Below, in pieces: positions 1 to 16,697 of a stretch of DNA of 64,000 nt. The notes beneath the pieces are model-generated. The model was not told the origin of the DNA. It did not search any database and saw nothing but the letters and a program-made list of their open reading frames with translations. The DNA is from Burkholderiaceae bacterium (lineage in GTDB: Bacteria > Pseudomonadota > Gammaproteobacteria > Burkholderiales > Burkholderiaceae_E). Numbering within the stretch: position 1 is the stretch's first letter; each line of letters opens with the position of its first letter. The DNA is taken from assembly GCA_024637155.1 (NCBI GenBank), contig JAGXFR010000019.1:1-64000 (forward strand). The letters are read 5' to 3'. Position numbers and translations under genes: made by a program.

Positions 1-95
1 AATGTCGAGGTATCGTACGCAAGCTTACAGAAGCGCGCCACATGACAAGGGGCTGACCCCTTGCGGGAGTCAACCCCTCGATTTTCCCGCTCGTG
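1..95. other. Chromosomal flank left of the integrated element
   Basis: This stretch lies outside the left att repeat, so it should be the DNA that originally followed the tRNA-Pro gene. It contains no credible gene. A small perfect hairpin (AAGGGG-CTGA-CCCCTT, 47-62) may be a remnant of the original transcription terminator of the tRNA, but it has no T-run, so that is only a guess. Confidence 0.5.
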
Positions 96-141
96 TTGGT
101 CGGGACGGAGTGATTCGAACACTCGACCCCTTGCACCCCAT
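96..141. repeat. Left attachment site (46-bp partial tRNA-Pro copy)
   Basis: This is an exact direct repeat of 16618-16663. It contains the T-arm, variable region, 3' anticodon stem and part of the anticodon loop of tRNA-Pro, including the encoded CCA. After position 141 it diverges (TTTCCG instead of TGCAAG), so this copy is only a gene fragment. It marks the left boundary created by site-specific integration. Confidence 0.95.
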
Positions 142-331: not shown

Positions 332-1681
332 ATGGCGAAGCACACCCTGACCGAGCGCAAAGTGCGCACTGCCCGATGCCCCGCTGGGGCCACGGAGACG
401 ACGATATACGATGGCGACGGATTGTGCCTCCGCGTTCGGGCGACGGCCGACGCGAAGAGCCCGCAACGCGCATGGCAATTTTGGTACACACGGAACGGCC
501 GCCGCCAGCGGATCGGGCTCGGTGCATACCCCGAGATCGGACTGAAGGACGCGCGAGATAGGGCTGATCGTTATCGCGAGTTGTTGCGCGCCGGGATCAC
601 GCCCACCAAAGCTATCCCAACGTTAACGCCGAACGATGTACCGCTAATTCCCCGCACGGTCGACGATCTCATGAATCGATGGCGCGCGAACTATCTCGCG
701 CACAACCACAAGGACGGAGGCGCCGCGTCAGAGGCGGCCTATCGGCGACATATCGGGCCCGCGATCGGTGCGACCCGACTCGTCGACGTCCGCAAACTGC
801 ATGTCCTGCATATCGTGAATGCCCTCACCGCCGCGGGAAAGGGGCGCACCGCCGCAGGGACGCTAGCGATGCTGCGTCAGATGTTCAACTGGGCCATACG
901 ACAGGATTTCGTAGCCGCCGATCCGACCGCCGCGCTGAAGAAGTCAGAGTACGCGGGAAAGACCGTCTCCCGAGACCGCGTGCTGAGCGGAGACGAGTTG
1001 CGCGAACTTGCGACGCGCCTGCAGGCGTCACGTCGTGCCGGGCCGAAAGGTCGAGAGCGCGTGTTTCCGGTGTTGCCTTTGGCTACGCAAGCGTCCGTCT
1101 GGGTCATGCTCGCGACGCTCGCGCGAGTCGGCGAATTGTCGCGGGCGCGTTGGGACAATATCGATCTAGATGCACGAACGTGGATTATTCCGGCGACGAA
1201 TTCGAAGAACGAGAAGCCGCATCTGGTGCACCTGAGCCCGTTTGCGATCCGACACTTGCGCCACCTACAGCAATACGCTGGCGCGGACGCCGAATGGGTC
1301 TTGCCGAACGCTCGCGGCTCCGGTCATCTCGATGTGCAGGCGATTACCAAGCAACTCCGTGATCGGCAACAACCCGCAACTACTGCTCAGCGCAAGGGGC
1401 GATCTGTCGAACGCTCCGCCCTCCATCTTCCCGGCGGCGACTTCACGGCGCATGACCTGCGGCGGACCGGGGCGACAATTATGCAATCCTTGGGCGTCGC
1501 CTCCGAGGTAATCGAGCGTTGCCTGAATCACGTTGAACGCGACGCGCTCGTACGAACGTACCAACGAGCCGAGTTGCTGCCGGAACGAGCCGAGGCGTTC
1601 GCAAAGCTCGGCGCGCAGCTCGACCGACTTGCGCCCGCCGCCGCGACCGCGCATCTCGCTATCAGAGGGACGAGGCCATGA
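332..1681 (+). CDS. Tyrosine recombinase/integrase, P4-type
   Basis: This 449-aa site-specific recombinase should integrate and excise the element at tRNA-Pro. The N-terminal ~90 residues match the DUF4102-type arm-binding domain of P4 integrases, with a GDGLCLRV stretch and a later LGAYPEIGLKDAR motif. A SAM-like core-binding domain follows. The catalytic domain shows Arg near residue 264 (LARVGELSRARW), Lys in NSKNEKPH, HDLRR near 374-378, His near 400 and the nucleophile Tyr near 410 (VRTYQ). The length is normal and all catalytic residues are present, so it is probably active. AGGAG precedes the ATG at a good distance. It lies beside the partial tRNA copy, and its stop overlaps the next start (ATGA). 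Confidence 0.95.
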   Translation: MAKHTLTERKVRTARCPAGATETTIYDGDGLCLRVRATADAKSPQRAWQFWYTRNGRRQRIGLGAYPEIGLKDARDRADRYRELLRAGITPTKAIPTLTPNDVPLIPRTVDDLMNRWRANYLAHNHKDGGAASEAAYRRHIGPAIGATRLVDVRKLHVLHIVNALTAAGKGRTAAGTLAMLRQMFNWAIRQDFVAADPTAALKKSEYAGKTVSRDRVLSGDELRELATRLQASRRAGPKGRERVFPVLPLATQASVWVMLATLARVGELSRARWDNIDLDARTWIIPATNSKNEKPHLVHLSPFAIRHLRHLQQYAGADAEWVLPNARGSGHLDVQAITKQLRDRQQPATTAQRKGRSVERSALHLPGGDFTAHDLRRTGATIMQSLGVASEVIERCLNHVERDALVRTYQRAELLPERAEAFAKLGAQLDRLAPAAATAHLAIRGTRP

Positions 1682-2912: not shown

Positions 2913-3365
2913 TCAGCCCGTCCCGATAAGGTCGCTGCGCAATCGAAGTGCGCGAAAGTAAGCCATCTGGCGCTTGTGCAGTCCATGAACGATTGGTCCA
3001 CGCGGGTTCCGGATCGATCGACCGAGATGGTTCGAGATCAGCGGTCCTTCGGCGTCAAGCAATGCGGCTTCGCGTTCGATGTCAGCCAACGTACGAGCCA
3101 ATTGCGCCGCGACCGGCAACTCGAACGGTTTCCACGACTCGTACGGCCGTACCCGGATAATCGCATCCCAAAACGCTAGGTCGCCGGGCCGGAGCCGCAG
3201 GTGAGACGGCACGTTCGGAGGCCCTTTTGCGGCGGTCCGAAAGGCTTCTACGGCGGCTTCGACGGAGGTAGCTGGTAGGCGTTTCACGGCTGTAATTCCG
3301 GGTAGGCGTTGAGCCGAAGATGTACAGCCGGTCTTAGCCCCCATGGTCCGTACGGCTGAGACCAC
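2913..3365 (-). CDS. Phage terminase small subunit-like protein
   Basis: This protein of up to 150 aa resembles prophage small terminase subunits. The segment LRLRPGDLAFWDAIIRVR, then VAAQLARTLADIEREAALLD, then a basic HKRQMAYFRALRL tail follows the layout of that family, in which an N-terminal helical DNA-binding part is followed by an oligomerisation region. Small terminases recognise the pac/cos site; satellites encode their own to redirect packaging of helper-phage capsids to satellite DNA. It is last in the minus-strand structural operon. The start is uncertain: GTG at 3365, or ATG at 3344. No large terminase is present in the element. Confidence 0.7.
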   Translation of the reverse strand: MVSAVRTMGAKTGCTSSAQRLPGITAVKRLPATSVEAAVEAFRTAAKGPPNVPSHLRLRPGDLAFWDAIIRVRPYESWKPFELPVAAQLARTLADIEREAALLDAEGPLISNHLGRSIRNPRGPIVHGLHKRQMAYFRALRLRSDLIGTG

Positions 3366-3881: not shown

Positions 3882-4946
3882 TCAGTAGCCGACGCCGGTC
3901 AAGACGGCCGCCGTCCCGGTCCGTCGACGCCGCCAGTTGACCGTCCGCTCGGCTCGAAGTGCCACCATGTTCAGTTGCCAAAGACTGACGAGTTGCTGTG
4001 CGCCTGCATAAGGCGCATCGCTCATCTGCGCCGCCGCGTGCCGCGCAACGTCGAAGGTCGCGTCGCCTTCGTCGGCCAGCGCTATGCCGTCCGCGTCCAG
4101 TAGCACGATGCATGTAGCGGCGGGGGAGCCGACCAGCGGAACGTTCCCACTGGTGACAACCGGAAGGCCGAAAAGCGTGCCGCCTCGCGCAGTGACCGTG
4201 GGGAACGCGAGCCCACCGCCAGTACCACGAAGACGAGCGAGATATGCTGCGGTAGTGGGCCGCATAATCCACGCTGCCGCGCTGAGGTCGGATCCCATGT
4301 CGCTGAGGCTGCCGATCAAGCCGCCGAGATCGCCGTCTATTGCACCCAGCGTCGCACCAGTACTCGCGAACGACGGCGCACCGTAGGTGACGGACGCCGG
4401 CTTGTCAACGGTTCCCGCGTTGGCTGGATCGATGAATGCCAAGTCGACCGCCTCCGCACATGCCCGACCCAAATCTGCGAGCAGGGTCTCTTCGGCCGAC
4501 GGTGTCGAGAGCCGTAGCAGCTCCTGCGTCGCGATGGAGATCGCTACGACCTTCGCTGGACCAAGCGACGTTGCTTGCTCGGCCAAGATTGCGGCAGTGA
4601 GCGGTTTAGGGGCACCTTCCCCGACCCAACTCGCCGAACCACCGGCGGTCATGCCGACCATCCGCGTGTTGAACGGGACGTGCAGTACACCAGGAACACG
4701 CCAGACAAGGGTCAGGGGTCTAAGGTACTCGGCAAAATCGATCGCAACCGGTCGAATTAGCGCCGCGGCGCTGCTAGCATCGAGGCCATCGACAGCAGCT
4801 TTGAGCGCACGTATCACACTCGGCGTACTGCGCCAGTCCTGGCCTTCGGCATAGGCCATTGCGGCGGTTGGATCGCCTTCGGCATTCGCCAGTGAGCGAA
4901 GGTAGCGCGCCGCCGCCAGTCCCTTCCGCGTGATGTTTGTACTCAT
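3882..4946 (-). CDS. Phage major capsid protein, HK97 family
   Basis: This 354-aa protein has the sequence character of HK97-fold capsids. A helical N-terminal portion is followed by a conserved VPFNTRMVGMTAGGSASWV/GEGAPKP stretch (the usual GSASWVGEG-type motif). An AxxIaiSTQELLRLS-like E-loop/spine region comes next, and near the C-terminus ARGGTLFGLPVVTSGNVP, as in the A-domain of these proteins. I chose the ATG at 4946 because it overlaps the upstream stop (ATGA) and has AGGAA just upstream; a longer version adds nine residues. A capsid protein without portal, protease or tail genes suggests the element modifies or replaces the head of a helper phage. Confidence 0.88.
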   Translation of the reverse strand: MSTNITRKGLAAARYLRSLANAEGDPTAAMAYAEGQDWRSTPSVIRALKAAVDGLDASSAAALIRPVAIDFAEYLRPLTLVWRVPGVLHVPFNTRMVGMTAGGSASWVGEGAPKPLTAAILAEQATSLGPAKVVAISIATQELLRLSTPSAEETLLADLGRACAEAVDLAFIDPANAGTVDKPASVTYGAPSFASTGATLGAIDGDLGGLIGSLSDMGSDLSAAAWIMRPTTAAYLARLRGTGGGLAFPTVTARGGTLFGLPVVTSGNVPLVGSPAATCIVLLDADGIALADEGDATFDVARHAAAQMSDAPYAGAQQLVSLWQLNMVALRAERTVNWRRRRTGTAAVLTGVGY

Positions 4947-5263
4947 CGAGATTCCTCGTTTTGCTGTGGACAAGTCGAGTTTCCGCCATCTTCGAATCTC
5001 TCGCCTTCATCGCGATGACAAGCCCAAATCGTCGCTGGGGTCCGATGCGAACCACGGCGAGCGTTGACTTTCAGGTAGTCGTGTTCTAACCCGCCACCGT
5101 TCGCTAGCCACGCATTTATCGCGCCGCCGACGAACAGCCGCGCCGGTAGAGGCGGCGTCCGACCGGCGAGCAGATCTCGCGCTACCTCTCCGAGTAGCCG
5201 CACGCGATCTTCGCGGGTGAATCCGTCGGGGAGCCGCGATCTGCCGAACGGGTCGTGAATCAT
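4943..5263 (-). CDS. Hypothetical protein upstream of capsid (106 aa)
   Basis: This soluble 106-aa protein (MIHDPFGRSRLPDGFTREDRVRLLGEVARDLL...) has a helical N-terminal half and a polar, Cys-containing tail. No family is recognised. Its stop overlaps the capsid start (ATGA), and it is the first gene after the candidate origin region. This pattern marks it as a real, coupled gene of the structural operon. Confidence 0.6.
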   Translation of the reverse strand: MIHDPFGRSRLPDGFTREDRVRLLGEVARDLLAGRTPPLPARLFVGGAINAWLANGGGLEHDYLKVNARRGSHRTPATIWACHRDEGERFEDGGNSTCPQQNEESR

Positions 5264-5314
5264 GGCTATCGACCCCGTCGCCGACCCAAGCCGCAGGGCT
5301 CCAACCGAGATCGC

Positions 5315-5418
5315 CGCCCGCTTCGCCCGGTTTTCCCTTTTCCGGCTACTTCGTTATTAAATTCGAATATATTTCTCTCGCGTCCAAGAAATAGGAAACC
5401 GGGCGAAGCGGGCGAAGC
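5315..5418. repeat. Inverted-repeat/iteron region with AT-rich core: candidate replication origin
   Basis: A 22-bp arm (5315-5336) is the inverse of 5394-5414, with one bulged base. The arms enclose about 57 bp whose centre is very AT-rich (TTATTAAATTCGAATATATT) in an otherwise GC-rich context. The 9-mer GGGCGAAGC occurs twice in tandem (5401-5409, 5410-5418) and once inverted (5320-5328). The region separates the helicase gene from the structural operon. Iterons beside an AT-rich unwinding region next to a replication protein fit an origin. It could instead be a terminator/promoter region, or a packaging (pac/cos) site. Confidence 0.5.
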
Positions 5419-5426
5419 GCGCGGCG

Positions 5427-6956
5427 TCACCGACCGACCTCCTTCAACTGTCCCGCGGCACCGCCCACCGCGCTCGCCGCGAGAGCAGCGAGAATGCGAT
5501 CCTCCAGGGCTTCGGGCGGCATCGACATCAGATCCTTCCGCACGAGCGCATTCCGCGCGCGCAGTTCAGGACCACCCTTTGGCTTGAATCGGAAGCCCGT
5601 CAGGGGCGGCTGTGGCCGTACCACCTCGTAGCCGCTACGCCGAGCAACATGATCGATGCGGCGTGTACCGAGGATCTTCTCCAATTCCTCTTTGTGGTCA
5701 AACGCCGGCGCTAGCAATTGCGCCGCGAAGACAATTTCGGGGCGGCCGAGGCGCTCTAAGGCATCGTCCAAAGGTCCCTCAGGAGCGTTCCAGGATTGCT
5801 GGAGGCGCTGCTTTGCGCGCGAGATCGGGGCGTGTCCATGCGGTTTGAACGCACCGATGTCCCGCGTCATGAGCCACCATCGAACCGATTGATTACCACC
5901 GCCTTCGCGGAGCCACGCGAAGTACCGTTCGAAGAAATCGGGGCGGCCCATGTCGCAGTGCCAGTTCTTCGGCGCACGCGATTCGAGGATGAACAGTCGC
6001 CGATCGTCCTCGGGCATGAACAGCACATCCCGATGGTTCGTGATCAGGAATACCCGCACCAGATTCATCACGTAGTACGGATCGTGGAACTTCCTGTCGG
6101 CGCGTAGGGTCTCGGGAGGCGTCGCCGTCAACGGCTTCAGGCCCTCGTACAGCAGCGGGTACCGATGATCTTGGTGCTGAGGGCGAACCTCATTGACGAT
6201 CAGCACCAAAGTCTCGCCGCAGTTCCCGAATCGGTCGAAAAGCACGTCTGGATCAACGACCTTGCTGTTGGCGGCGCCAACTGCCTTGATCAGCGGCAGC
6301 AAGAGAGCGTCCTTGCCGATGCCCTGCTCGCCGATCAAGGCGACGCCAAAATTCGCCTTTTCGCCGGGGCGCTGCACAACGTGGGCGCAATAGTCGAAGA
6401 ACACCATCCGGTTTTCGGCATCCGGAAACAAGTGTTCCACCAGCTCGAACCACAGCGTCGGCGGCTCGTGTCCGGCATCGAGCGGAAGCGGTTCGGGCGG
6501 ACGGTAGGTGTTGAATAGGCGCGCTCCTAGCGACGGTTCAGGGCCGGAGTCGCGCATGATCACGTCGCGAATAATCTGCGGCTTCCCGGGCCACCACGTG
6601 CTCCCCTCGACAAACTGATCGTTCTCAACGCGACAAATGTCGGCCGAAGGCGCTATCAGTCGCTCGCGCCGGTTACGTGGTCGCCCCCTGCGTCGAGATT
6701 GCCCTTCAGGCGGCTCAGGATCGCCCTCCTCCACCTCGACCCGCCACAACGTCCGCGGGATCGACGCGTCGACCGCTTTCGGTCCGTAGAGCTTGCCGAC
6801 GCGGAGATCCCAGTAGGCTTCCTGCGCCTTGTCGTAGACGTAGTCCTCGGGTCGCGCTTGGCGGCGCTGTTGGGCCAACAGTTTCGCCAGTTCCTCCATC
6901 TCGGCTTGAACTCGCGCCCGAACGGCGTCGCCGCTACTTGTTTCATTGCTCATCAT
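5427..6956 (-). CDS. DUF5906/VapE-type SF3-like helicase (satellite replication protein)
   Basis: This ~509-aa protein carries a Walker A motif (GEQGIGKD) in the context of a virulence-associated-E / D5-like superfamily 3 helicase. It also has VFFDYCAHVVQRPGEKANFG before it, an LVLIVNEVR Walker B-like strand and an RVFLITNHRDVLFMPEDDRR sensor region. An N-terminal helical part (residues 1-90) may be the primase or accessory region; no catalytic primase motif is evident. These proteins drive autonomous replication of satellites. The start is one of two adjacent ATGs (6956/6953). Upstream is AlpA; downstream is the candidate origin. Confidence 0.82.
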   Translation of the reverse strand: MMSNETSSGDAVRARVQAEMEELAKLLAQQRRQARPEDYVYDKAQEAYWDLRVGKLYGPKAVDASIPRTLWRVEVEEGDPEPPEGQSRRRGRPRNRRERLIAPSADICRVENDQFVEGSTWWPGKPQIIRDVIMRDSGPEPSLGARLFNTYRPPEPLPLDAGHEPPTLWFELVEHLFPDAENRMVFFDYCAHVVQRPGEKANFGVALIGEQGIGKDALLLPLIKAVGAANSKVVDPDVLFDRFGNCGETLVLIVNEVRPQHQDHRYPLLYEGLKPLTATPPETLRADRKFHDPYYVMNLVRVFLITNHRDVLFMPEDDRRLFILESRAPKNWHCDMGRPDFFERYFAWLREGGGNQSVRWWLMTRDIGAFKPHGHAPISRAKQRLQQSWNAPEGPLDDALERLGRPEIVFAAQLLAPAFDHKEELEKILGTRRIDHVARRSGYEVVRPQPPLTGFRFKPKGGPELRARNALVRKDLMSMPPEALEDRILAALAASAVGGAAGQLKEVGR

Positions 6957-7048
6957 TGGCCAGCCGTCTGTAATCGCGCGACTCGTGCGGATCCGCATCG
7001 AACTCGCTACCGCACCGAGGCAAGCCGCCGACCCCAGCATCACACCAG

Positions 7049-7345
7049 CTACCGGTCGCGTTCATTTCGGGCGCCCCCGGCTTGGGTTCGACGACCGCCG
7101 CGGGCGCGCGCTTCCAATACTTCCCTCCGCCGCGGTGGCACTACCCCCGCGTCACGCTCGGCGACACGCTGCGTGTTCCACTCACAAACCTCGCCCGCAA
7201 TCCATGCGGTTTGTCGCGCGTCGAGCAGGACCGGCGCCGGAAAGGTACCTGCGCGGACGCGATTGTCGATACCGCGCGGGCTGAGGCCCGTCACCTCGCA
7301 AACACGCGGCTTGCGCCACAAGATCGGAAAACTTTCATCGCTCAC
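7049..7345 (-). CDS. AlpA-family transcriptional regulator / excisionase-like
   Basis: This 98-aa protein starts with a MerR-like winged-helix of the AlpA type: WRKPRVCEVTGLSPRGIDNRVRAGTFPAPVLLDARQTAW followed by VCEWNTQRVAERD. The GTG start at 7345 is supported by AGGAG 6 nt upstream. AlpA proteins activate integrase/excision or replication genes in P4-like satellites and PICIs. It is the first gene of the minus-strand block and is followed by the helicase. The basic C-terminal tail (about 30 residues) is not part of the domain. Confidence 0.85.
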   Translation of the reverse strand: MSDESFPILWRKPRVCEVTGLSPRGIDNRVRAGTFPAPVLLDARQTAWIAGEVCEWNTQRVAERDAGVVPPRRREVLEARARGGRRTQAGGARNERDR

Positions 7346-8233: not shown

Positions 8234-10966
8234 ATGGCCCTTCACCCTGAGTTTCCGCGCTCGCCCTACGAGGTTCTGAGTCCGGCGCTTCGCTGGTTTC
8301 CGGCTGCCGAGGAACTGCGTCATACGGCCTACGAGAAGCTGCTGCCGCCGCTGGTGGCCAAGGTTCGAGAAGAGGTCAAGACCTGGCGCGAATCGGGTTA
8401 TACAGGAGCATCCGCAACGTCCCGTGCGCTGCTCGCTTGGTGGTTCCATACGGACCACCTGATGGAGCAAGCGGATGGCGCGCAAAGCGCGTTCCGCTAC
8501 TACTTCGCGCAGCGCGAAGCAGTCGAAACGGTGATCTGGCTCTACGACGTACGCGGCGCACGCGACAAATTCGACCTGCTGCGCTTCGATGCTTCCGGTG
8601 CAGTATCGAGCAACATGTTTGACGAGGACTGGCCGCGCTTCGTGGTCAAAATGGCCACGGGCGCGGGCAAGACCAAAGTGCTGTCGCTGCTGATTGCTTG
8701 GTGCTACTTCCACAAGCTCTACGAAGCGGATTCGTCGCTGGCACGCAACTTCCTGCTGATCGCGCCCAACATCATCGTGTTGGATCGCCTGCGTGCCGAC
8801 TTCGACGGGCTACGCATTTTCTTCAACGATCCAGTCCTGCCCGACAACGGCTATGCCGGGCAGAACTGGCGGGATGATTTCCAGGTGGCCTTGCACATTC
8901 AGGACGACGTACGCGTCGTCCGCCCGACCGGCAACATATTCCTGACCAACATTCACCGCGTCTATCTCAGCGATGTGCCCGAACCTTCGCTCGACGATGA
9001 TGACATGCGCGACTACTTCCTCGCCCCCTTCGGCGCAAAGCCCGTCGGCAAGACCACAGACAACAACACCGACTTGGGCGAGATCGTTCGCGAGATCGAT
9101 GAACTCGCAGTGTTCAATGACGAAGCGCACCACATCCACGACAACCGCATGGCCTGGTTCCAATGCATCCAGGACATTCACCACCGCCTTCTTCAGAAAG
9201 ACCTACGGCTGGCGATACAGGTGGACGTAACGGCCACGCCGCGCCACGACAACGGCGCGATCTTCGTGCAGACCGTGAGCGACTATCCACTGGTTGAAGC
9301 GATTGCCCAGAACGTGGTCAAGCACCCGGTGTTGCCGGATGCCGCCAGCCGCGCCAAGCTCGCCGAATACAAGAGCCCGCTCATCACCGAGAAGTACGCA
9401 GACTACCTACAGCTCGGCGTCGAGGAATGGCGCAAGAGCTACGCTGAGCACGAAAAGCTGGGCAAGAAGGCCGTGCTGTTCGTGATGGTCGACGACACCA
9501 AAAACTGCGACGAGGTGGGCGCGCACCTTGAGAAGATTTGCCCCGAGTTCCAGGATGCGGTGCTGGTGATCCACACCAAAAACAACGGCGAGATTTCCGA
9601 GGCAGCCTCTGGCAAGAACAAGGAGGAGCTGGAGGTTCTGCGCAAGCAGTCGAACGAGATCGACACTTGGAAGTCGCCGTTCAAGGCAATTGTCTCCGTG
9701 CTGATGCTCAAGGAAGGGTGGGACGTTCGCAACGTCACCACCATCGTCGGTCTGCGCGCATACGCTGCCAGGAGCAACATCCTGCCTGAGCAAACGCTAG
9801 GGCGTGGTCTGCGCCGCATGTATTTCGGCACTGACCAGCGCGAGACCGTTTCGGTCATGGGAACGCCCGCCTTCATGGAATTCGTGGAATCCATCCAGAA
9901 CGAAGGCGTCACCTTCGACCGGGTCCCGATGGGCGGCGCAGGAGGGCGGGAACGGCAGGACTCTCTGGTCGTTGAAGTGGAGACCGAATCGCCTGACAAG
10001 GACATCGACGCACTCGACATCTCTGTACCGCGACTGACCCGGCGCTACAACCGGGAATTCAAAGACCTGACGGAGCTGGCGCCCGAGTTCTTCGGCAACC
10101 CGAAGCTACCCGTCAAGGCTTTCACACCGGAAGAGACCCGCGAAATCGTCTTCAAGACCATGCTCGACGCCGAGGTCGATCACACAATGCTCCTAGACGG
10201 TACCGGTCCTGGCGACTATCGCGCCGTCGTAGCGTTCTTTGCCCGGCAGCTCCTCAAGGACTTGCGCCTCGTCGGCGGTTACGACCTGCTCTATCCGAAG
10301 GTCAAGACGTTCATCCGTGACCATCTCTTCACCAACCCCGTCGATCTTGAAGATCCGGTGATCCTGCGCAACCTGTCCGAGCCGGAGGTCAGCAAGGTGC
10401 TGTTCGACCATTTCCGCTCAGCGATCAACAAGCTGACGATCTACGAGAGTGGTAGCTCGCGCATCGACGGGCATATCCGGTTGCGCGATACCCGCCCCTT
10501 CCGCACTGAGCCGCGCGGCTTCGTGCAAGCGAAGAAGTCGGTGTTCAACCGCATTGTCGGTGAGGCCAGCGCCGATGGCCTGGAGCTGGCATTCGCCGCG
10601 TTCCTCGAAACCGCGCCCGATGTACAGGCCTTCGGCAAGAACTACATGGCGGTTGGCTTCAAGATCGAGTACGTCAAGGGCAACGGTGAACTGTCTACCT
10701 ACACGCCGGACTTCATTGTCAGAACTGGGAGCGGCGAAGTCTGGATCGTCGAGACCAAGGGTCGCGAGGAACTTGACCTGCCGCAGAAAATGGCGCGGCT
10801 GCGTCAATGGTGCGAAGACGCCACCGAAGCGACCAGGGACGATGGAGGGCCGACTTACCACTTCGTCTATGTCGATCAGGCGAGTTTCGAGCAGCACAAG
10901 CCGTCAACGTTCGCGGGACTAGCCAGCACTTTCCGCGAATACCAAAATGAAAACCGCAAGGGCTGA
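8234..10966 (+). CDS. Type III-like restriction endonuclease (Res, SF2 helicase-nuclease)
   Basis: This 910-aa protein combines an SF2 helicase with a C-terminal nuclease. Walker A is MATGAGKT (about residue 140-147). The DEAH-type box is FNDEAHH (about 294-300), motif III is VTAT, and the arginine-finger motif VI is QTLGRGLRRM. The C-terminus has a PD-(D/E)XK signature, TPDFIV then VWIVETKG (about 823-842). Residues 1-140 are a helical adaptor for DNA or Mod binding. Two bases separate its stop from the methyltransferase ATG, so the two genes form one unit. It would cleave foreign DNA lacking the cognate methylation. Gene order (res before mod) is the reverse of classical Type III systems. 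Confidence 0.9.
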   Translation: MALHPEFPRSPYEVLSPALRWFPAAEELRHTAYEKLLPPLVAKVREEVKTWRESGYTGASATSRALLAWWFHTDHLMEQADGAQSAFRYYFAQREAVETVIWLYDVRGARDKFDLLRFDASGAVSSNMFDEDWPRFVVKMATGAGKTKVLSLLIAWCYFHKLYEADSSLARNFLLIAPNIIVLDRLRADFDGLRIFFNDPVLPDNGYAGQNWRDDFQVALHIQDDVRVVRPTGNIFLTNIHRVYLSDVPEPSLDDDDMRDYFLAPFGAKPVGKTTDNNTDLGEIVREIDELAVFNDEAHHIHDNRMAWFQCIQDIHHRLLQKDLRLAIQVDVTATPRHDNGAIFVQTVSDYPLVEAIAQNVVKHPVLPDAASRAKLAEYKSPLITEKYADYLQLGVEEWRKSYAEHEKLGKKAVLFVMVDDTKNCDEVGAHLEKICPEFQDAVLVIHTKNNGEISEAASGKNKEELEVLRKQSNEIDTWKSPFKAIVSVLMLKEGWDVRNVTTIVGLRAYAARSNILPEQTLGRGLRRMYFGTDQRETVSVMGTPAFMEFVESIQNEGVTFDRVPMGGAGGRERQDSLVVEVETESPDKDIDALDISVPRLTRRYNREFKDLTELAPEFFGNPKLPVKAFTPEETREIVFKTMLDAEVDHTMLLDGTGPGDYRAVVAFFARQLLKDLRLVGGYDLLYPKVKTFIRDHLFTNPVDLEDPVILRNLSEPEVSKVLFDHFRSAINKLTIYESGSSRIDGHIRLRDTRPFRTEPRGFVQAKKSVFNRIVGEASADGLELAFAAFLETAPDVQAFGKNYMAVGFKIEYVKGNGELSTYTPDFIVRTGSGEVWIVETKGREELDLPQKMARLRQWCEDATEATRDDGGPTYHFVYVDQASFEQHKPSTFAGLASTFREYQNENRKG

Positions 10967-10968
10967 CG

Positions 10969-13137
10969 ATGGCACGCCAAGACAAGAAATCCTATGACCT
11001 CAGCGAAGCCGAGCAGCGCGACCTGGTCACGCTAATCCAGCAAGGCAAGGTCCTGCCGGAGAAATTCCGCTTCATCCTGTTCGAGGACAAGCGCGAGGTC
11101 GAATTGGTCTGGAACGGCAAGACTCGGGACGTTTGCACCACGGTGCTGCCCTTCCAAACGCTTGAACACATTGACGAGCCACGCACCGAGACCAAGACGC
11201 AGGAAGACCTCTTCGACAGTCGTGGCCGCCAACAAAGAGGCTGGACCAACAAGCTAATCTGGGGTGACAACAAGCTGATCTTGTCGTCGCTGAAGGCGGG
11301 ACCGCTGCGCCAGCAGATCGAGGACGCGGGGGGGCTGAAGCTGATCTACATCGACCCGCCGTTCGACGTAGGCGCGGATTTCAGCATGGATATCGAGATC
11401 GGCGGCGAGACCTTCCACAAGGAGGCGAACCTGCTGGAGCAAATCGCCTATCGCGACACTTGGGGGCGCGGCGCTGACAGCTTCATTTCGATGATCTATG
11501 AGCGTCTGATTTTGATGCGGGACTTGATGGCTGATGACGGCAGCATTTACGTGCACTGCGACTACCGCGTGAGCAGTTACATGCGCGGCGTGCTGGACGA
11601 GGTCTTCGGAAAAGAGCAACTCCGCAACCACATTCTTTGGCTATATAGCGGTGGTGGTGTGCCTAGGTCGGAGATGCCAAAGAAGCACGACGATATCTTC
11701 TGGTACACGAAGGGTCAGACTTGGACCTATAACCCAATTTTTCGTGAATACTCCGAAGGAACCGTTCAACGAGGTCGCACGGCCGTCAAGGGTGAGAACG
11801 CAGAACTACGTGCGGAGGGAACACCAATCAACAACTGGTGGCCCGACGTAAAGAAAATTACAAGCCCAACAGATCCCGAGAAGCTGTACTACCCAACGCA
11901 GAAGTCAGAGGAGTTGCTTGAGAGAATCATCTCGCTTTCCAGCAATGGAGGTGACCTAGTTGCCGACTTCTTCGTAGGCTCCGGCACGACTGCCGCAGTC
12001 GCCGAAAAGCTCGGGCGCAAATGGATCGCAACCGACCTGGGAAAGTTCGGGGTCCACACGACGCGGAAGCGGTTGATCGGCGTTCAGCGCGAGAAGAAAG
12101 CCGCCGAGCAAGACTTCCGCGCCTTTGAGGTGCTGAACCTTGGCCGCTATGAACGGCAGGCCTACCTGAACGTCGGCGGGCGCTTGACAGCCACACAGAA
12201 GGCGCAAGCACTCGCCCAGAAAGAAAACGAGTTCCGCGAGTTGATCCTGCGTGCCTATAAGGCTTCCGGATTTGGCGGCAACGAAGGCGCGCAGGCACAG
12301 GACGGGTTTTTCCACGGTGCGCGCAATGGACGGCTAGTGGTGATCGGCCCGATTAATCTGCCCGTGGGGCGGTTGTTCGTCGAAGAGGTCATCACCGAAT
12401 GCCGCAAGCGTGGCGCCTCCCGCGTGGACGTGCTGGCCTTCGAGTTCGAGATGGGCCTGTTCCCCGCCGCGCTGGAAGAGGCGCGCGGAAAGGGCATCGA
12501 CCTTACCCCGAAATACATTCCCGCCGAAGTCTTCGACAAGCGCGCGGTGGATAAGGGCCAGGTGGTCTTTCACGACATCAGCTTCGTCGAAGCCACACCG
12601 CGCTACGACAAGAAGGACAAACGCGCGGTCAAGATCGAACTGGCCGACTTTTCCGTCTACTACACGCAGGGCGCCGCCGAATCCGCGATCGCCGCCATGA
12701 AGGATGGCAAGAGCGAGGTCATGTGCGAGCAGGGCCAGCTCTACAAGGTCAGCAAGAACAAGGACGGCATCGTCAAGAAAGAGAAGCTCACCAAGCACTG
12801 GACCGACTGGGTCGATTACTGGGCGGTGGACTTCGATTATTTTCAGCGCAAGGAAATCATCAAAGTGCCGGTGGGATCGAGCCTCGGCGGCGTCACGTCG
12901 CTGCCGGGTTTCGAGCCACCGCAAGGTGAACTCGCCATGCAATTCGAGGAACGCTGGACGGGCGGCTACATCTTCGAAAACGAATGGCAGAGCTTCCGCA
13001 CACGCCAGAACCGCGACCTGGAGCTGACGACCGCGCTGCACACCTACGACCGGCCCGGTCGCTACACCGTCGCCGTCAAGGTGATCGATATCTTTGGGAA
13101 TGACACGATGACGCTCGTTCCCGTGAACGTGGGGTAA
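10969..13137 (+). CDS. Adenine-specific DNA methyltransferase, beta class (Mod)
   Basis: This 722-aa N6-adenine methyltransferase forms the modification subunit for the upstream endonuclease. The catalytic motif IV (YIDPPF, about residue 127-132) precedes the target-recognition region and the SAM-binding motif I (DFFVGSGTT, about 333-341); this order defines the beta class used by Type III Mods. Beyond about residue 400 there is an unusually long C-terminal region, ending in a beta-sandwich-like YDRPGRYTVAVKVID segment reminiscent of PKD/Ig-like folds. That extension probably serves as a recognition or interaction module with the nuclease. The gene appears intact. Confidence 0.9.
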   Translation: MARQDKKSYDLSEAEQRDLVTLIQQGKVLPEKFRFILFEDKREVELVWNGKTRDVCTTVLPFQTLEHIDEPRTETKTQEDLFDSRGRQQRGWTNKLIWGDNKLILSSLKAGPLRQQIEDAGGLKLIYIDPPFDVGADFSMDIEIGGETFHKEANLLEQIAYRDTWGRGADSFISMIYERLILMRDLMADDGSIYVHCDYRVSSYMRGVLDEVFGKEQLRNHILWLYSGGGVPRSEMPKKHDDIFWYTKGQTWTYNPIFREYSEGTVQRGRTAVKGENAELRAEGTPINNWWPDVKKITSPTDPEKLYYPTQKSEELLERIISLSSNGGDLVADFFVGSGTTAAVAEKLGRKWIATDLGKFGVHTTRKRLIGVQREKKAAEQDFRAFEVLNLGRYERQAYLNVGGRLTATQKAQALAQKENEFRELILRAYKASGFGGNEGAQAQDGFFHGARNGRLVVIGPINLPVGRLFVEEVITECRKRGASRVDVLAFEFEMGLFPAALEEARGKGIDLTPKYIPAEVFDKRAVDKGQVVFHDISFVEATPRYDKKDKRAVKIELADFSVYYTQGAAESAIAAMKDGKSEVMCEQGQLYKVSKNKDGIVKKEKLTKHWTDWVDYWAVDFDYFQRKEIIKVPVGSSLGGVTSLPGFEPPQGELAMQFEERWTGGYIFENEWQSFRTRQNRDLELTTALHTYDRPGRYTVAVKVIDIFGNDTMTLVPVNVG

Positions 13138-13142
13138 TCACA

Positions 13143-13564
13143 TTGGCACTGATGGACCTGGCGAAGATTCAAGAGTTGCCTTCGGGCGCGCGTTTCTATC
13201 GATGCGCATTCCAGGTCAACACATTCGACTACGTGCCGCCGCGTGAGGCGGTCGCGGAAGCCTTTCAGCGCAAGCAACGAAAGGCCCGAAGGCTTTCAGA
13301 CGACGAACTCGGACGTCGCGCAGAACAGGCTCACGCAAAGCCGGGACGCCGCGAGACTACGTCAACCCCTCATGATCGCAGTCCGTGGGTAGCAGAGCAC
13401 GCGAAACGTCGTGCCAAGGGCTATGCGACCTTTGTGGGCAGGGCGCACCGTTCATGGACCATGACGGTCAACCATATCTTGAAAGTCACCACGTCATTTG
13501 GCTAGCAAACGATGGAGAGGATCACTACTCGAAAGAAGCGCTTGCCGGGCAAATTGCTTGGTGA
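13143..13564 (+). pseudogene. Frameshifted and truncated HNH endonuclease
   Basis: The first ~93 codons (TTG at 13143 or ATG at 13152) read as the N-terminal part of an HNH nuclease, ending SPWVAEHAKRRAKGY. Adding one base near 13422-13424 restores KGYCDLCGQGAPF, then DHDGQPYLESHHVIWLANDGED, the zinc-finger and His-His core of the family. The expected closing segment (a CPNCH-type motif) is absent: after about 13522 the frame runs into unrelated sequence and stops at 13562. The gene is therefore broken twice, by a one-base deletion and by loss of its 3' end. It follows the methyltransferase closely and was probably part of the restriction cassette. Confidence 0.8.
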
Positions 13565-13982
13565 TGCTGGCGAGCACTACGCGTTAAGTCAGTTCAGCTT
13601 TGCCGGCAAGTACGCCGCGAAAATGCCTGACAACTGGGAGGCCTACGACCTAGCCGTCGAGACTGGCTCAGGCCTAGTGCGTGTGAGCGTGAAGACCCGA
13701 AGCGAGACAAGTGGCTGGAAGGCCAACAGCTGGTTCACCTTCGACGATCGGAAGGAATGTGATTGGGTGGTTTTTATTTTCAAGCCGCGCACTGGAATCG
13801 TCCGTTCGTGGATCGTTCCATACGAGGTAGTTGAACAGAACGCGAATGTGCCTGGTCTCGGCCGCAAGGATGCGTGGTTTCGTGATGTCTCTTGGGCCAA
13901 GCTAAACAAATCGCCACTGGCGGATTACGAGAATAATTGGTCGCTCTTGGCGGATCCAGGAGATGTGTCACAACGTGGCTAG
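13512..13982 (+). CDS. PD-(D/E)XK-like protein of unknown role (156 aa)
   Basis: This 156-aa soluble protein starts inside the broken HNH gene. Glu21 (GDAGEHYALSQ), Asp46 (EAYDLAV) and the strand VRVSVKTR with Ser59-x-Lys61 match the E...D...(E/Q/S)xK layout of restriction/resolvase-fold nucleases. A WFTFDDRKECDWVVFIF core strand follows. No clear ribosome binding site precedes the ATG, so the original start may have been lost at the junction with the HNH fragment. A nuclease or DNA-binding function is plausible; the target is unknown. Confidence 0.65.
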   Translation: MERITTRKKRLPGKLLGDAGEHYALSQFSFAGKYAAKMPDNWEAYDLAVETGSGLVRVSVKTRSETSGWKANSWFTFDDRKECDWVVFIFKPRTGIVRSWIVPYEVVEQNANVPGLGRKDAWFRDVSWAKLNKSPLADYENNWSLLADPGDVSQRG

Positions 13983-14322
13983 GCTCTCGCCAACAATCCT
14001 GTGTGCGATCAGATCAGTATTTCGCGCGCGGATCAATTCCCGCGACCTAGTCCCTTTGTGGGGTTCTCGCCACTGAGCCTGAGGAGCAGAATCAGGCACG
14101 GAAAATGGGAGGATGGAATCAACTTCCACGACCTAGCGAATGATGCGTTGGCTGAAGGGCTCCGAGCGCTGCTCGGAAGGGACATTATGGCGGCACAGGC
14201 CAGCGAACCAACTGCAGTACCGGGGGCAGAAGGCGTCCAACCGTCTGGTTGGGTTCGCCGATGCCGAAAATCGGGTACAAGACCGTCTCTCCAGCACACC
14301 TTAGAAGCCGGAGGAATTACCG
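13983..14322. other. Intergenic stretch before the first cassette-like gene; no supported gene
   Basis: A plus-strand frame is open from 14001 to 14354, but it overlaps the start of the next gene, has no ribosome binding site and matches nothing I recognise. It contains TTAGAAGC at 14301, which lies 22 nt before the next start codon. That is the same distance as between the attC core TTAG (15277) and the second cassette gene (15299). A degenerate attC upstream (RYYYAAC-like GTCCAAC at 14235) cannot be demonstrated. Confidence 0.5.
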
Positions 14323-15210
14323 TTGACTACAGTAGAAGTTCATCGGGAAGTTGATCGCTTCGTCCTCTACTTCGAAACGCCGAAGCATGAGGTGAGTGCA
14401 TATGCGCTTGCTAGCGCCCTTGTGGGACTAGCAGATGCCGTGCGTGAGGCCAACAACCTTGTCAACCCAGGGCACGTTGTTGAGGTCGTTGTCGAGTCAC
14501 TCAGTGACGGTAGCTTCAAGGCAACGGTTCGAACGGTTTACACCAAGGCAAAAAATCTCTTCTCGCACACCGCCGTTCAGGCGGTGATCTACGGAGTCAT
14601 CTCGACCTACGTCTACGAGAAGGGCCTGAAGTCTGAAGTACCTCCGCAAATTATCGTCACCGGTGATCTCGTGACTGTAGTCATTGGTAACGACAGGATC
14701 ATCGTCCCCAAGGACGTCTACGAGGCAAAGCGCCAACTTGAGAAATCGATTCGCTTCAAGAGCGCAGTAGGTCAAATCTTCGATGCCGCCAGTTCTGACG
14801 TTTCAATCACTGGCCTCGCGATTACCGAAGATGATGGTGGCAAACGGCCACCGCTCATGGTGAATCGGGAACAGTTCGCGATCTTTGAGGTGAGCCGAGA
14901 CGTTGATGAGCACATCCGCGAGATTGTGGAAATCACACACGTTGAAATCAATCGCGCCATCCTGGAGCGTGGTAAGCGTCGCTGGGAGTTCTTCTGGCGA
15001 GGTATTCGTATAGCCGCACCGATACTCGACGACGGCTTCTACGATCGGTTCTTCGCGCATGAAATAACCATAGCGCCAGGCGACTCTTTGCATGTTGCCC
15101 TCCGAATCATCCAAGAGAAGAGTCGCGACACTGGAATCTATGTGAACGCTAGATACGAGATCGTGGAGGTCTATGAACACCTTCCTCGACTCAAACAAAC
15201 CGGCTTCTAA
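14323..15210 (+). CDS. Uncharacterised cassette protein (295 aa)
   Basis: The TTG start at 14323 is favoured by GGAGG about 8 nt upstream. The 295-aa product begins MTTVEVHREVDRFVLYFETP and reads as an N-terminal alpha/beta domain. A short hydrophobic stretch (AVQAVIYGVISTYVYE, about 87-102) follows, then a second beta-rich domain containing FFWRGIRIAAPILDDGFYDRFF. No catalytic motif is obvious and no family is recognised. The stop codon (TAA) lies inside a following attC-like site, typical of integron cassettes. The base composition is lower in GC than the chromosome. A defence or host-interaction role is only a guess from neighbourhood. Confidence 0.75.
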   Translation: MTTVEVHREVDRFVLYFETPKHEVSAYALASALVGLADAVREANNLVNPGHVVEVVVESLSDGSFKATVRTVYTKAKNLFSHTAVQAVIYGVISTYVYEKGLKSEVPPQIIVTGDLVTVVIGNDRIIVPKDVYEAKRQLEKSIRFKSAVGQIFDAASSDVSITGLAITEDDGGKRPPLMVNREQFAIFEVSRDVDEHIREIVEITHVEINRAILERGKRRWEFFWRGIRIAAPILDDGFYDRFFAHEITIAPGDSLHVALRIIQEKSRDTGIYVNARYEIVEVYEHLPRLKQTGF

Positions 15211-15282
15211 CCCTTACCATGGGGTCGAGCTGACGTCTCCCGGCCTGCAACATTCAGTCGCGGCTCACCTCAAACGTTAGGC
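15205..15282 (+). repeat. attC-like recombination site 1
   Basis: The outer arms are CTAAC (15207-15211) and GTTAGGC (15276-15282), matching the conserved integron core consensus GTTRRRY. The inner arms GGGGTCGAGC (15221-15230) and GCTCACCTC (15263-15271) pair over nine positions, leaving one unpaired base (C15226). That extrahelical base is the hallmark that gives attC its polarity. The total length is about 77 bp. It overlaps the stop codon of the preceding gene and lies 17 nt before the next ATG. Confidence 0.7.
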
Positions 15283-15298
15283 AACGCAACTACCTCAG

Positions 15299-16324
15299 AT
15301 GCCAATGGACCTATTCACCCCGGTCATTCCTCAATCTGAGCAACACCAAATCTTTCAAATGCTACTCGACAAGAGGTATGCAGCTGAAAGGGTCGTAGTT
15401 ACAAGCTTCGCAAGAGACTTTCGGGATCGTGACGGAAAATTCGTTCGCGAGTTTCAGAGCACTTTTGAGTCAAGCTTCTGGGAGCTCTATCTGAACGCTG
15501 CGGCGTCGACTTGGGGCTTAACTATCGACCGCACATACGGTTCACCAGACTTTGTAGTCACGGCACCAACCTCACTCTGCATTGAAGCAACTATTGCCGC
15601 GCCCGCACAGGGTGGCAAGCCTCCGATCGGCTACGAAATCTCAGACATCCCCGAAGACTTCACTGACTTCAACGTCCAAGCGTCTCTGCGCCTTAGCAAC
15701 AGCTTCACATCGAAGGTAAAGCGATATCGAGACTACTACGCTTCCCTTCCACAGGCTTCCAATCGCCCATTTGTTATAGCAATCGCCCCTTTCGACAGGC
15801 CAGGGGCACACTTTGCCGCTGGGCGTTCAGTCATGCCTACACTGTACGGCCTATACCACGATGAAGCAGCCACGTCGCCCGACGCGAAAGAAGTTGTGAG
15901 CTATAACGTCTCGGCTGCGGCCAAGTCCGAGACAGTCGTTGTGCCAATGGGCCTCTTCTGCGATGACGCCTACGAGGATGTTTCTGCGGTCATCTATAGC
16001 GCACTAGCTACTTGGGGCAAGATCCGAGCACTCGCCGACAACCCTGGCGCTAGGACCGTCTACACAACTTTCCACACGAATGAAGGCAGCTTGCTGCCGG
16101 AAGTTCGACGCACGCAAAAGAGCGACTACACCGAGGACCTACTTGACGGTCTGTACGTGCTGCACAACCCGTTCGCCAAGTTTCCTGTTCCCAGGGGCCT
16201 TCTATCCCATCATCGACTTGCAGAGGTACGCGTCGCCCATGATGGAGAGTTGCTCATAGAGGCGCCAGATGACTTTCTTCTCTTGCGCTCGCTCTTTTCA
16301 GTCAATGAGCGTTCCAGTTATTAA
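15299..16324 (+). CDS. Uncharacterised cassette protein with nuclease-fold-like N-terminus (341 aa)
   Basis: This 341-aa protein starts at ATG 15299 (a second in-frame ATG is at 15305), 22 nt after the attC core TTAG. Residues FWELYL (Glu62), GSPDFVV (Asp84) and CIEATIA (Glu96) follow the spacing of a PD-(D/E)XK nuclease core, but the expected Lys two residues after Glu96 is Thr. The protein may therefore be inactive or use a variant site. The N-terminus MDLFTPVIPQSEQHQIF and the DRDGKFVREFQ segment resemble a widespread uncharacterised bacterial family I have seen but cannot name with certainty. It is followed by a second attC-like site. Confidence 0.75.
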   Translation: MPMDLFTPVIPQSEQHQIFQMLLDKRYAAERVVVTSFARDFRDRDGKFVREFQSTFESSFWELYLNAAASTWGLTIDRTYGSPDFVVTAPTSLCIEATIAAPAQGGKPPIGYEISDIPEDFTDFNVQASLRLSNSFTSKVKRYRDYYASLPQASNRPFVIAIAPFDRPGAHFAAGRSVMPTLYGLYHDEAATSPDAKEVVSYNVSAAAKSETVVVPMGLFCDDAYEDVSAVIYSALATWGKIRALADNPGARTVYTTFHTNEGSLLPEVRRTQKSDYTEDLLDGLYVLHNPFAKFPVPRGLLSHHRLAEVRVAHDGELLIEAPDDFLLLRSLFSVNERSSY

Positions 16325-16330
16325 GGGGCT

Positions 16331-16407
16331 ACCTAGCCCTTCCATCAATCCGGACGCCTGCCGGCAAGCTCCGCTAGCCTCCAGTCTCCCCGCGGATGAC
16401 GTTAGGC
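16331..16407 (+). repeat. attC-like recombination site 2
   Basis: The outer arms are CCTAGC (16332-16337) and GTTAGGC (16401-16407). The left arm departs by one base from the RYYYAAC consensus. The inner arms CATCAATCCG (16343-16352) and CGGATGAC (16393-16400) pair if one A is left unpaired. It starts just after the stop of the preceding gene and is about 77 bp long, as for site 1. The two sites share only the core and the architecture, as expected for attC. Confidence 0.6.
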
Positions 16408-16570
16408 CCTACGCCTGCAGCATCCGACGTTCAATCGCCCGATGGTGGTCTCGTTCAGTCGTTTTCGCGGCAAACTTGGCAGCCTGCCGTTCATGCGTCC
16501 GCCGCGTCGACCGAACTTCGAACTAGCTCAGAGAAATAGAAGCACCCCTAAAAGCACCCCTAGAAAGAAA
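16408..16570. other. Right arm of the element with GCACCCCT repeats
   Basis: No gene is supported between the second attC-like site and the terminator. GCACCCCT occurs at 16541-16548 and 16553-16560, the same motif found three times left of the integrase gene and once in each att core. These are candidate integrase arm-binding sites on the opposite arm. Confidence 0.5.
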
Positions 16571-16600: not shown

Positions 16601-16618
16601 GATTTACTTCTATTATTT

Positions 16619-16697
<79 letters not shown>

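What the first reader, a model, noticed from the sequence alone, without database searches (positions are those of the whole stretch)
13983..16410. Two attC-like sites: integron-type gene cassettes inside a phage-satellite-like island, without an integrase
Two uncharacterised genes are each followed by a ~77-bp site with the attC layout: outer arms CTAAC/CTAGC with GTTAGGC, and inner arms that pair except for one unpaired base. The second gene starts 22 nt after the first site's TTAG. A TTAG also lies exactly 22 nt before the first gene's start. The stop codons abut or overlap the sites, and the genes are less GC-rich than the chromosome. Integron cassettes in a tRNA-inserted, capsid-carrying element would link two gene-capture systems.
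Basis: partly seen in the sequence, partly recalled or inferred. Interest (0 to 1): 0.85.

Follow-up and report, generated by a model that had tools for sequence, protein, structure and literature searches.

The report
Integron defence cassettes in satellite-like island
A small tRNA-inserted, capsid-carrying mobile element holds two anti-phage-type genes that still bear the (partly decayed) recombination sites of integron gene cassettes, and the same two gene families turn up as integron cassettes in other bacteria, once inside a prophage, which suggests that integrons are one source of the defence genes carried by phages and their satellites.

Summary
The observation largely holds. Site 1 (15205-15282) is a real attC: a covariance model trained on 43 unrelated attC sites scores 20.3 bits (E=0.0005 in 4 kb); a second model from the host's own family and order gives 20.5 bits (E=0.0015 in the window). 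Site 2 (16331-16407) has a clear attC left half but a decayed right half; only one model finds it (11.9 bits). The two best matches to an attC left half in the window are these two sites. Both fold far less well than real attC, so they are probably worn. No integron integrase passes cut-off in the 91% complete genome, yet other attC sites, including an array of four, lie elsewhere in it. The genes are PDC-S42-like and PD-T7-5 (anti-phage families). Homologues of both are attC-flanked cassettes elsewhere (PD-T7-5: Gilvimarinus, Vreelandella, a Lysobacterales MAG; PDC-S42: an intI-bearing genome), and an Aeromonas PD-T7-5 cassette sits between gpA and portal of a P2-like prophage. The island has tRNA-Pro att repeats, integrase, AlpA, primase, TerS, capsid and a type III R-M system. 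Best reading: a two-cassette CALIN that became defence cargo of a satellite-like element. Each ingredient is known; I found no report of the combination.

The parts
96..141 (.). distal att site: 46-bp perfect copy of the 3' part of tRNA-Pro
   Evidence: (46/46 identity)
332..1681 (+). tyrosine integrase of the island (Arm-DNA-bind_3 + Phage_integrase)
   Evidence: Pfam PF13356 E=8e-18, PF00589 E=1e-16; phrog_1 E=5e-57
2913..3365 (-). terminase small subunit
   Evidence: phrog_5601 E=2.7e-21
3882..4973 (-). HK97-type major capsid protein
   Evidence: PF05065 E=7.7e-17; phrog_617 E=1.5e-46
5427..7043 (-). primase/helicase (DUF5906)
   Evidence: PF19263 E=4e-10; phrog_1156 DNA primase E=7e-22
7049..7345 (-). 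AlpA-like excisionase/regulator
   Evidence: phrog_66 E=3.9e-6
8234..13137 (+). type III restriction-modification system (res 8234-10966, mod 10969-13137)
   Evidence: PADLOC REase_III E=8e-23, MTase_III E=6e-118
13512..13982 (+). possible PD-(D/E)XK nuclease gene, last gene before the cassettes
   Evidence: PF11645 E=0.0013, below gathering score
14301..14304 (+). TTAG upstream of gene 1: possible left border of the cassette pair, preceded by C instead of G; not proven
   Evidence: sequence
14323..15210 (+). cassette gene 1, PDC-S42-like protein (295 aa, TTG start); predicted hydrophobic helix and C-terminal beta-rich domain
   Evidence: PADLOC PDLC05015 E=3e-22; model pLDDT 75, only weak OB-fold-like matches
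15205..15282 (+). attC site 1 (model match 15211-15282; R' GTTAGGC 15276-15282)
   Evidence: R1 20.3 bits, R2 20.5 bits; best window match to attC right-half consensus and second place to left-half consensus
15299..16324 (+). cassette gene 2, PD-T7-5 anti-phage protein (341 aa; likely start at 15305)
   Evidence: PADLOC PDLC04110 E=8.6e-98; start inferred from alignment A3
16331..16407 (+). degenerate attC site 2 (R' GTTAGGC 16401-16407)
   Evidence: R1 11.9 bits, E=0.054 in 4 kb; best window match to attC left-half consensus; not found by R2
16618..16663 (.). proximal att site at the 3' end of tRNA-Pro
16619..16695 (-). tRNA-Pro(ggg), integration target
   Evidence: ARAGORN

Best explanation
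The two genes are a short array of integron gene cassettes without an integrase (a CALIN of two) lying at the tRNA end of a 16.5-kb satellite-like integrative element. Each cassette is one anti-phage-type gene followed by its attC. Shown: attC homology (strong for site 1, half a site for site 2), same-strand gene-attC-gene-attC order, the tRNA att repeats and satellite-type gene set, and family members as real cassettes elsewhere. Inferred: an integron integrase acting in trans, in this or an earlier host, inserted the cassettes into the element (an attG-like secondary site), or an array fragment was pulled in by another recombination. The attC sites then decayed, so the pair now travels with the element through its own integrase and, probably, helper-phage packaging. 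There it adds PDC-S42-like and PD-T7-5 (nuclease-type) defence to the type III R-M system.
For: attC models trained on other sequences. Half-site scan. attC sites elsewhere in the same genome, including an array of four with cassette genes on contig C39; attC widespread in the family. Gene families. PD-T7-5 cassettes: Gilvimarinus L116 (53% id, attC both sides), Vreelandella L115 (55%, attI-like sequence upstream, attC-like downstream), Lysobacterales MAG L117 (54%), Aeromonas L134 (36%). PDC-S42 cassettes: L228 (attC both sides; genome G072 has intI), L226 (attC upstream). Tree: the window gene, the Gilvimarinus/Vreelandella/Lysobacterales group and Aeromonas are separate branches, pointing to several captures. 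Island. No integron integrase over cut-off.
Against: Site 2 is below significance in one model and absent in the other. Both sites fold poorly. The left border lacks the G of GTTRRRY. No homologous island without the cassettes was found, so insertion by IntI is not shown. The closest PD-T7-5 homologues (64%, L109 and L110) and the plasmid-borne ones tested have no attC hit. Gene 1 has only 14-23% identity to the family members found.
Confidence: 0.77

Rival explanations
1. The two sites are chance or terminator-like inverted repeats after two unrelated genes; there are no integron cassettes here.
For: Site 2 is weak and not found by R2; folding of both sites is not far from that of shuffled sequence; the closest homologues of gene 2 lack attC.
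Against: Site 1 is significant in two models trained on other sequences and stands 5.7 bits above the first doubtful hit in 3.2 Mb. The two best matches to an attC left half in the window are exactly these two sites. Both gene families occur as cassettes elsewhere.
Confidence: 0.08
2. The sites are real attC relics, but the array came in as a fragment by homologous or illegitimate recombination (for example from a CALIN-bearing chromosome or another phage), not by integron integrase insertion into the island.
For: No GTTRRRY at the left border; site 2 is decayed in its right half; no intI in the assembly; Qi et al. 2023 (PMC9892861) propose such routes for phage CALINs.
Against: Cassette order and phase are clean and the array ends with the second attC. 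Insertion at secondary (attG) sites is an established route (Loot et al. 2024, cited in PMC11389934).
Confidence: 0.35
3. The carrier is not a working satellite but a decayed prophage or a defence island at a tRNA gene.
For: Only capsid and TerS remain of the packaging genes; there is no room for portal, large terminase or tail genes; helper dependence is unknown.
Against: Perfect 46-bp att repeats, open frames for integrase, AlpA, primase, TerS and capsid, and an assembly break exactly at the end of the distal att site, as expected if an alternative junction exists in the sample (indirect).
Confidence: 0.3

Closest known systems
[quoted passage not shown] Cury et al. 2016, discussed in PMC11389934 and PMC12444791)
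   Same: gene-attC-gene-attC on one strand with no integrase nearby
   Different: only two sites, the second degenerate; carried by a tRNA-inserted element with capsid and TerS instead of plain chromosome or plasmid
CALINs in phage genomes (Qi et al. 2023, PMC9892861)
   Same: attC-bearing cassettes inside a virus-type element
   Different: that work covers phages and prophages and does not use the word satellite; here the carrier is satellite-like and both genes belong to anti-phage families
Anti-phage integron cassettes (Darracq et al. 2025 and a companion study, summarised in PMC12409362)
   Same: single-gene anti-phage systems borne on integron cassettes
   Different: those sit in chromosomal or mobile integrons; here the cassettes left the integron and are cargo of a satellite-like element
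P2/P4 anti-phage hotspots (Rousset et al. 2022, PMC9122126)
   Same: variable defence cargo in phages and satellites
   Different: that paper does not mention integrons or attC and leaves the recombination route open; here attC remnants point to integrons as a source

Membership tests
attC site (site 1) | R''/R' and L''/L' arms with one extrahelical base, recognised by an attC covariance model | tested here: met
   R1 E=0.00046 in 4 kb, R2 E=0.0015 in 64 kb; spacer or R'' is imperfect
attC site (site 2) | same | tested here: inconclusive
   R1 11.9 bits, E=0.054 in 4 kb; not reported by R2; left half is best match of the window
attC site (both) | stable bottom-strand hairpin | tested here: not met
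   z=-1.95 and -0.1 against -4.0 to -5.8 for real attC; read as decay
attC site (both) | recombination by an integron integrase | not testable with these tools
   needs a bench assay
CALIN | at least two attC sites | tested here: inconclusive
   one clear, one degenerate
CALIN | no integron integrase nearby | tested here: met
   none over cut-off in the whole assembly, best 84 bits against 265
integron gene cassette | same family found between attC sites in real arrays | tested here: met
   PD-T7-5: L116, L115, L117, L134; PDC-S42: L228, L226
integron gene cassette | G|TTRRRY border on the upstream side of the first cassette | tested here: not met
   C|TTAGAA at 14300/14301
phage satellite | own integrase and att sites, regulator and replication gene, few packaging genes | tested here: met
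phage satellite | mobilised by a helper phage | not testable with these tools
   no helper known
capsid-forming PICI | capsid together with portal and other head genes (definition from memory) | tested here: not met
   capsid and TerS only; no portal among the island ORFs tested and no room for more large genes
PD-T7-5 | profile match over full length | tested here: met
   PADLOC PDLC04110 E=8.6e-98, residues 3-336 of 341
PD-T7-5 | anti-phage activity | not testable with these tools
   needs plaque assays

The most novel reading that the evidence does not exclude
Integron cassettes are a recurrent supply line for the defence cargo of phages and satellites: PD-T7-5 genes were captured as cassettes several times, and at least twice (this satellite-like island and an Aeromonas P2-like prophage, between gpA and portal) such cassettes ended up in the cargo region of a phage-type element, which would answer how antiviral hotspots are loaded.
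Probability: 0.35. Interest if true: 0.8.

Novelty: new variant of a known kind. Interest (0 to 1): 0.6.

Why it matters
Phages and satellites carry hotspots of anti-phage genes, but how new genes get in is open (PMC9122126). Integrons are now known to bank small anti-phage genes (PMC12409362). Attachment-site remnants beside defence genes in a satellite-like island and in a prophage give a concrete link between the two that can be tested by scanning prophage and satellite hotspots for attC.

Tried and rejected
Rfam at gathering scores has nothing at the sites. The model search with filters off missed the sites, apparently because long hits exceed the scan window; default filters were used instead. 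TIGR02249 at a loose threshold rings in all control genomes (Xer-type recombinases); the own-genome hits (84 bits and less) are rejected as integron integrases. No relative of the island with or without the cassettes was found by downstream DNA, capsid, last-gene or integrase searches, so there is no empty site. Gene 1 has no relatives in phages, plasmids or viral contigs at the thresholds used. The gene-2 model (pLDDT 88) has no significant PDB match; gene 1 gives only weak OB-fold-like matches. The equal 22-nt leader was considered and dropped.

Full report
What is in the sequence. To test them without circularity I collected attC sites next to real integron integrases: integrase hits over the NCBIfam cut-off in 103 of 274 genomes of the class, neighbourhoods fetched, sites extracted by arm pairing, 43 of them aligned with the variable loop trimmed and made into covariance model R1. 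R1 finds site 1 at 15211-15282 with 20.3 bits, E=0.00046 in 4 kb, and site 2 at 16331-16407 with 11.9 bits, E=0.054. A second model, R2, from 59 matches (some duplicated) in genomes of the same family and order gives site 1 20.5 bits, E=0.0015 in the window, and does not report site 2. In the whole 3.2-Mb genome site 1 ranks ninth, above the first doubtful hit at 14.8 bits.

The two sites resemble one attC subtype of relatives (CTAACCCTTCCATCGAG...GCTCATGTCRAACGTTAG), which also occurs in this genome on contig C57. A simple local-alignment scan with the left half of that subtype puts site 2 and site 1 first and second of all places in the window on both strands; the right half puts site 1 first and site 2 in the top 0.1%. 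The subtype was chosen after seeing the sites, so this is supporting evidence only. The sites are worn: bottom-strand folding z-scores are -1.95 and -0.1 against -4.0 to -5.8 for three intact attC. Site 1 has either a mutated R'' or a spacer about 6 nt too long; site 2 lacks part of its right spacer and its inner arms pair poorly.

The genes. Gene 2 (15299-16324) matches PADLOC PD-T7-5 at E=8.6e-98, gene 1 (14323-15210) matches PDC-S42 at E=3e-22. PD-T7-5 is listed with a PD-(D/E)XK nuclease domain (PMC10952713); in the family alignment E62, D84 and E96 are invariant, though the usual lysine position reads T (EAT), so catalysis is likely but not shown. Homologues of gene 2 begin with the Met at 15305.

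Are these genes cassettes elsewhere? Yes. Of 51 gene-2 loci in named genomes, attC models and inspection show cassettes in Gilvimarinus agarilyticus (L116: attC on both sides), Vreelandella titanicae (L115: an attI-like sequence ending in GTTAGGC just upstream, attC-like site downstream), a Lysobacterales MAG (L117) and Aeromonas salmonicida (L134: attC 4904-4992 upstream at 26.5 bits); all are PD-T7-5 by PADLOC. For gene 1, a PDC-S42 protein in genome G072, which has an integron integrase, lies between attC sites (L228), and another has attC upstream (L226). In a tree of gene 2 the window protein groups with Aquabacterium and Pseudomonas proteins without attC; Gilvimarinus, Vreelandella and Lysobacterales form another group, and Aeromonas lies far away, which points to several separate captures (support on the nodes next to the window branch is 0.62-0.97).

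A second phage-type carrier. In Aeromonas salmonicida the cassettes (4214-4903, attC, PD-T7-5 gene 5001-6044, attC-like site) lie between the replication gene gpA (phrog_91, E=1e-189) and portal/terminase genes (phrog_68 E=1e-122; TerL) of a P2-like prophage. From the description in PMC9122126 (hotspots adjacent to cos) this looks like the P2 hotspot; that identity is inference. The same DNA appears in IMG/VR contigs L195 and L197.

The carrier in the window. A 46-bp perfect repeat of the tRNA-Pro 3' end lies at 96-141 and 16618-16663. Between them are a tyrosine integrase, TerS, HK97 capsid, primase, AlpA-like regulator, a type III R-M system, a possible PD-(D/E)XK gene and the two cassettes. 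No portal, large terminase or tail gene fits in the remaining space. This is a satellite-like gene set; helper dependence was not tested. No integron integrase passes cut-off in the assembly (90.6% complete), but an array of four attC with cassette genes lies on contig C39 and single sites on C1, C57, C12 and C35.

How it most likely works. Shown: attC homology, cassette layout, element borders and gene set. Inferred: the pair entered the element from an integron, either by an integron integrase at a secondary site (attG route, cited in PMC11389934) or by another recombination; it then decayed into fixed cargo. I could not separate these, since no relative of the island was found. The TTAG before gene 1 is preceded by C and is not a proven border. 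The anti-phage function of both genes rests on family membership alone.

Known or new. CALINs are known; CALINs in phages are known, with no mention of satellites (PMC9892861); anti-phage cassettes are known (PMC12409362); defence hotspots in phages and satellites are known, without integrons (PMC9122126). My literature searches found no report of integron cassettes in a satellite, but the library lacks many journals. I rate it a new variant of a known kind.

Noticed in passing
G000 contig C39 57790-60481 (L076 5791-8482): Array of four attC sites with four cassette genes and no integron integrase, upstream of an istA/istB-like transposase pair: a second CALIN in the same genome.
   Followed up: partly
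G000 contigs C1:1001-1058, C57:18476-18547, C12:20739-20798, C35:4049-4115: Single attC sites scattered in the genome (22-52 bits with model R2).
   Followed up: no
window 1-141 and G000 contig C43 1-141: C43 overlaps the window start by exactly 141 bases ending at the end of the 46-bp att copy: an assembly branch at the island's junction, perhaps an empty site or excised form in the sample.
   Followed up: partly
L134 1348-10367 (Aeromonas salmonicida ATCC 33658): P2-like prophage with integron cassettes, including a PD-T7-5 gene, between gpA and portal.
   Followed up: yes
G000 contig C39:4341-5312 (L235): A second capsid gene related to the island's (38% identity), on the same contig as the CALIN.
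   Followed up: no
L125 6014-6160 (Photobacterium damselae): By eye, a Vibrio-type attC (ending GTTAACT) appears to follow this PD-T7-5 homologue too; not found by the models.
   Followed up: no
L246-L279 (IMG/VR): 34 stretches of viral contigs hold exact matches to two attC right-half patterns, most confirmed by model R1; some may be host integron DNA in prophage predictions.
   Followed up: partly
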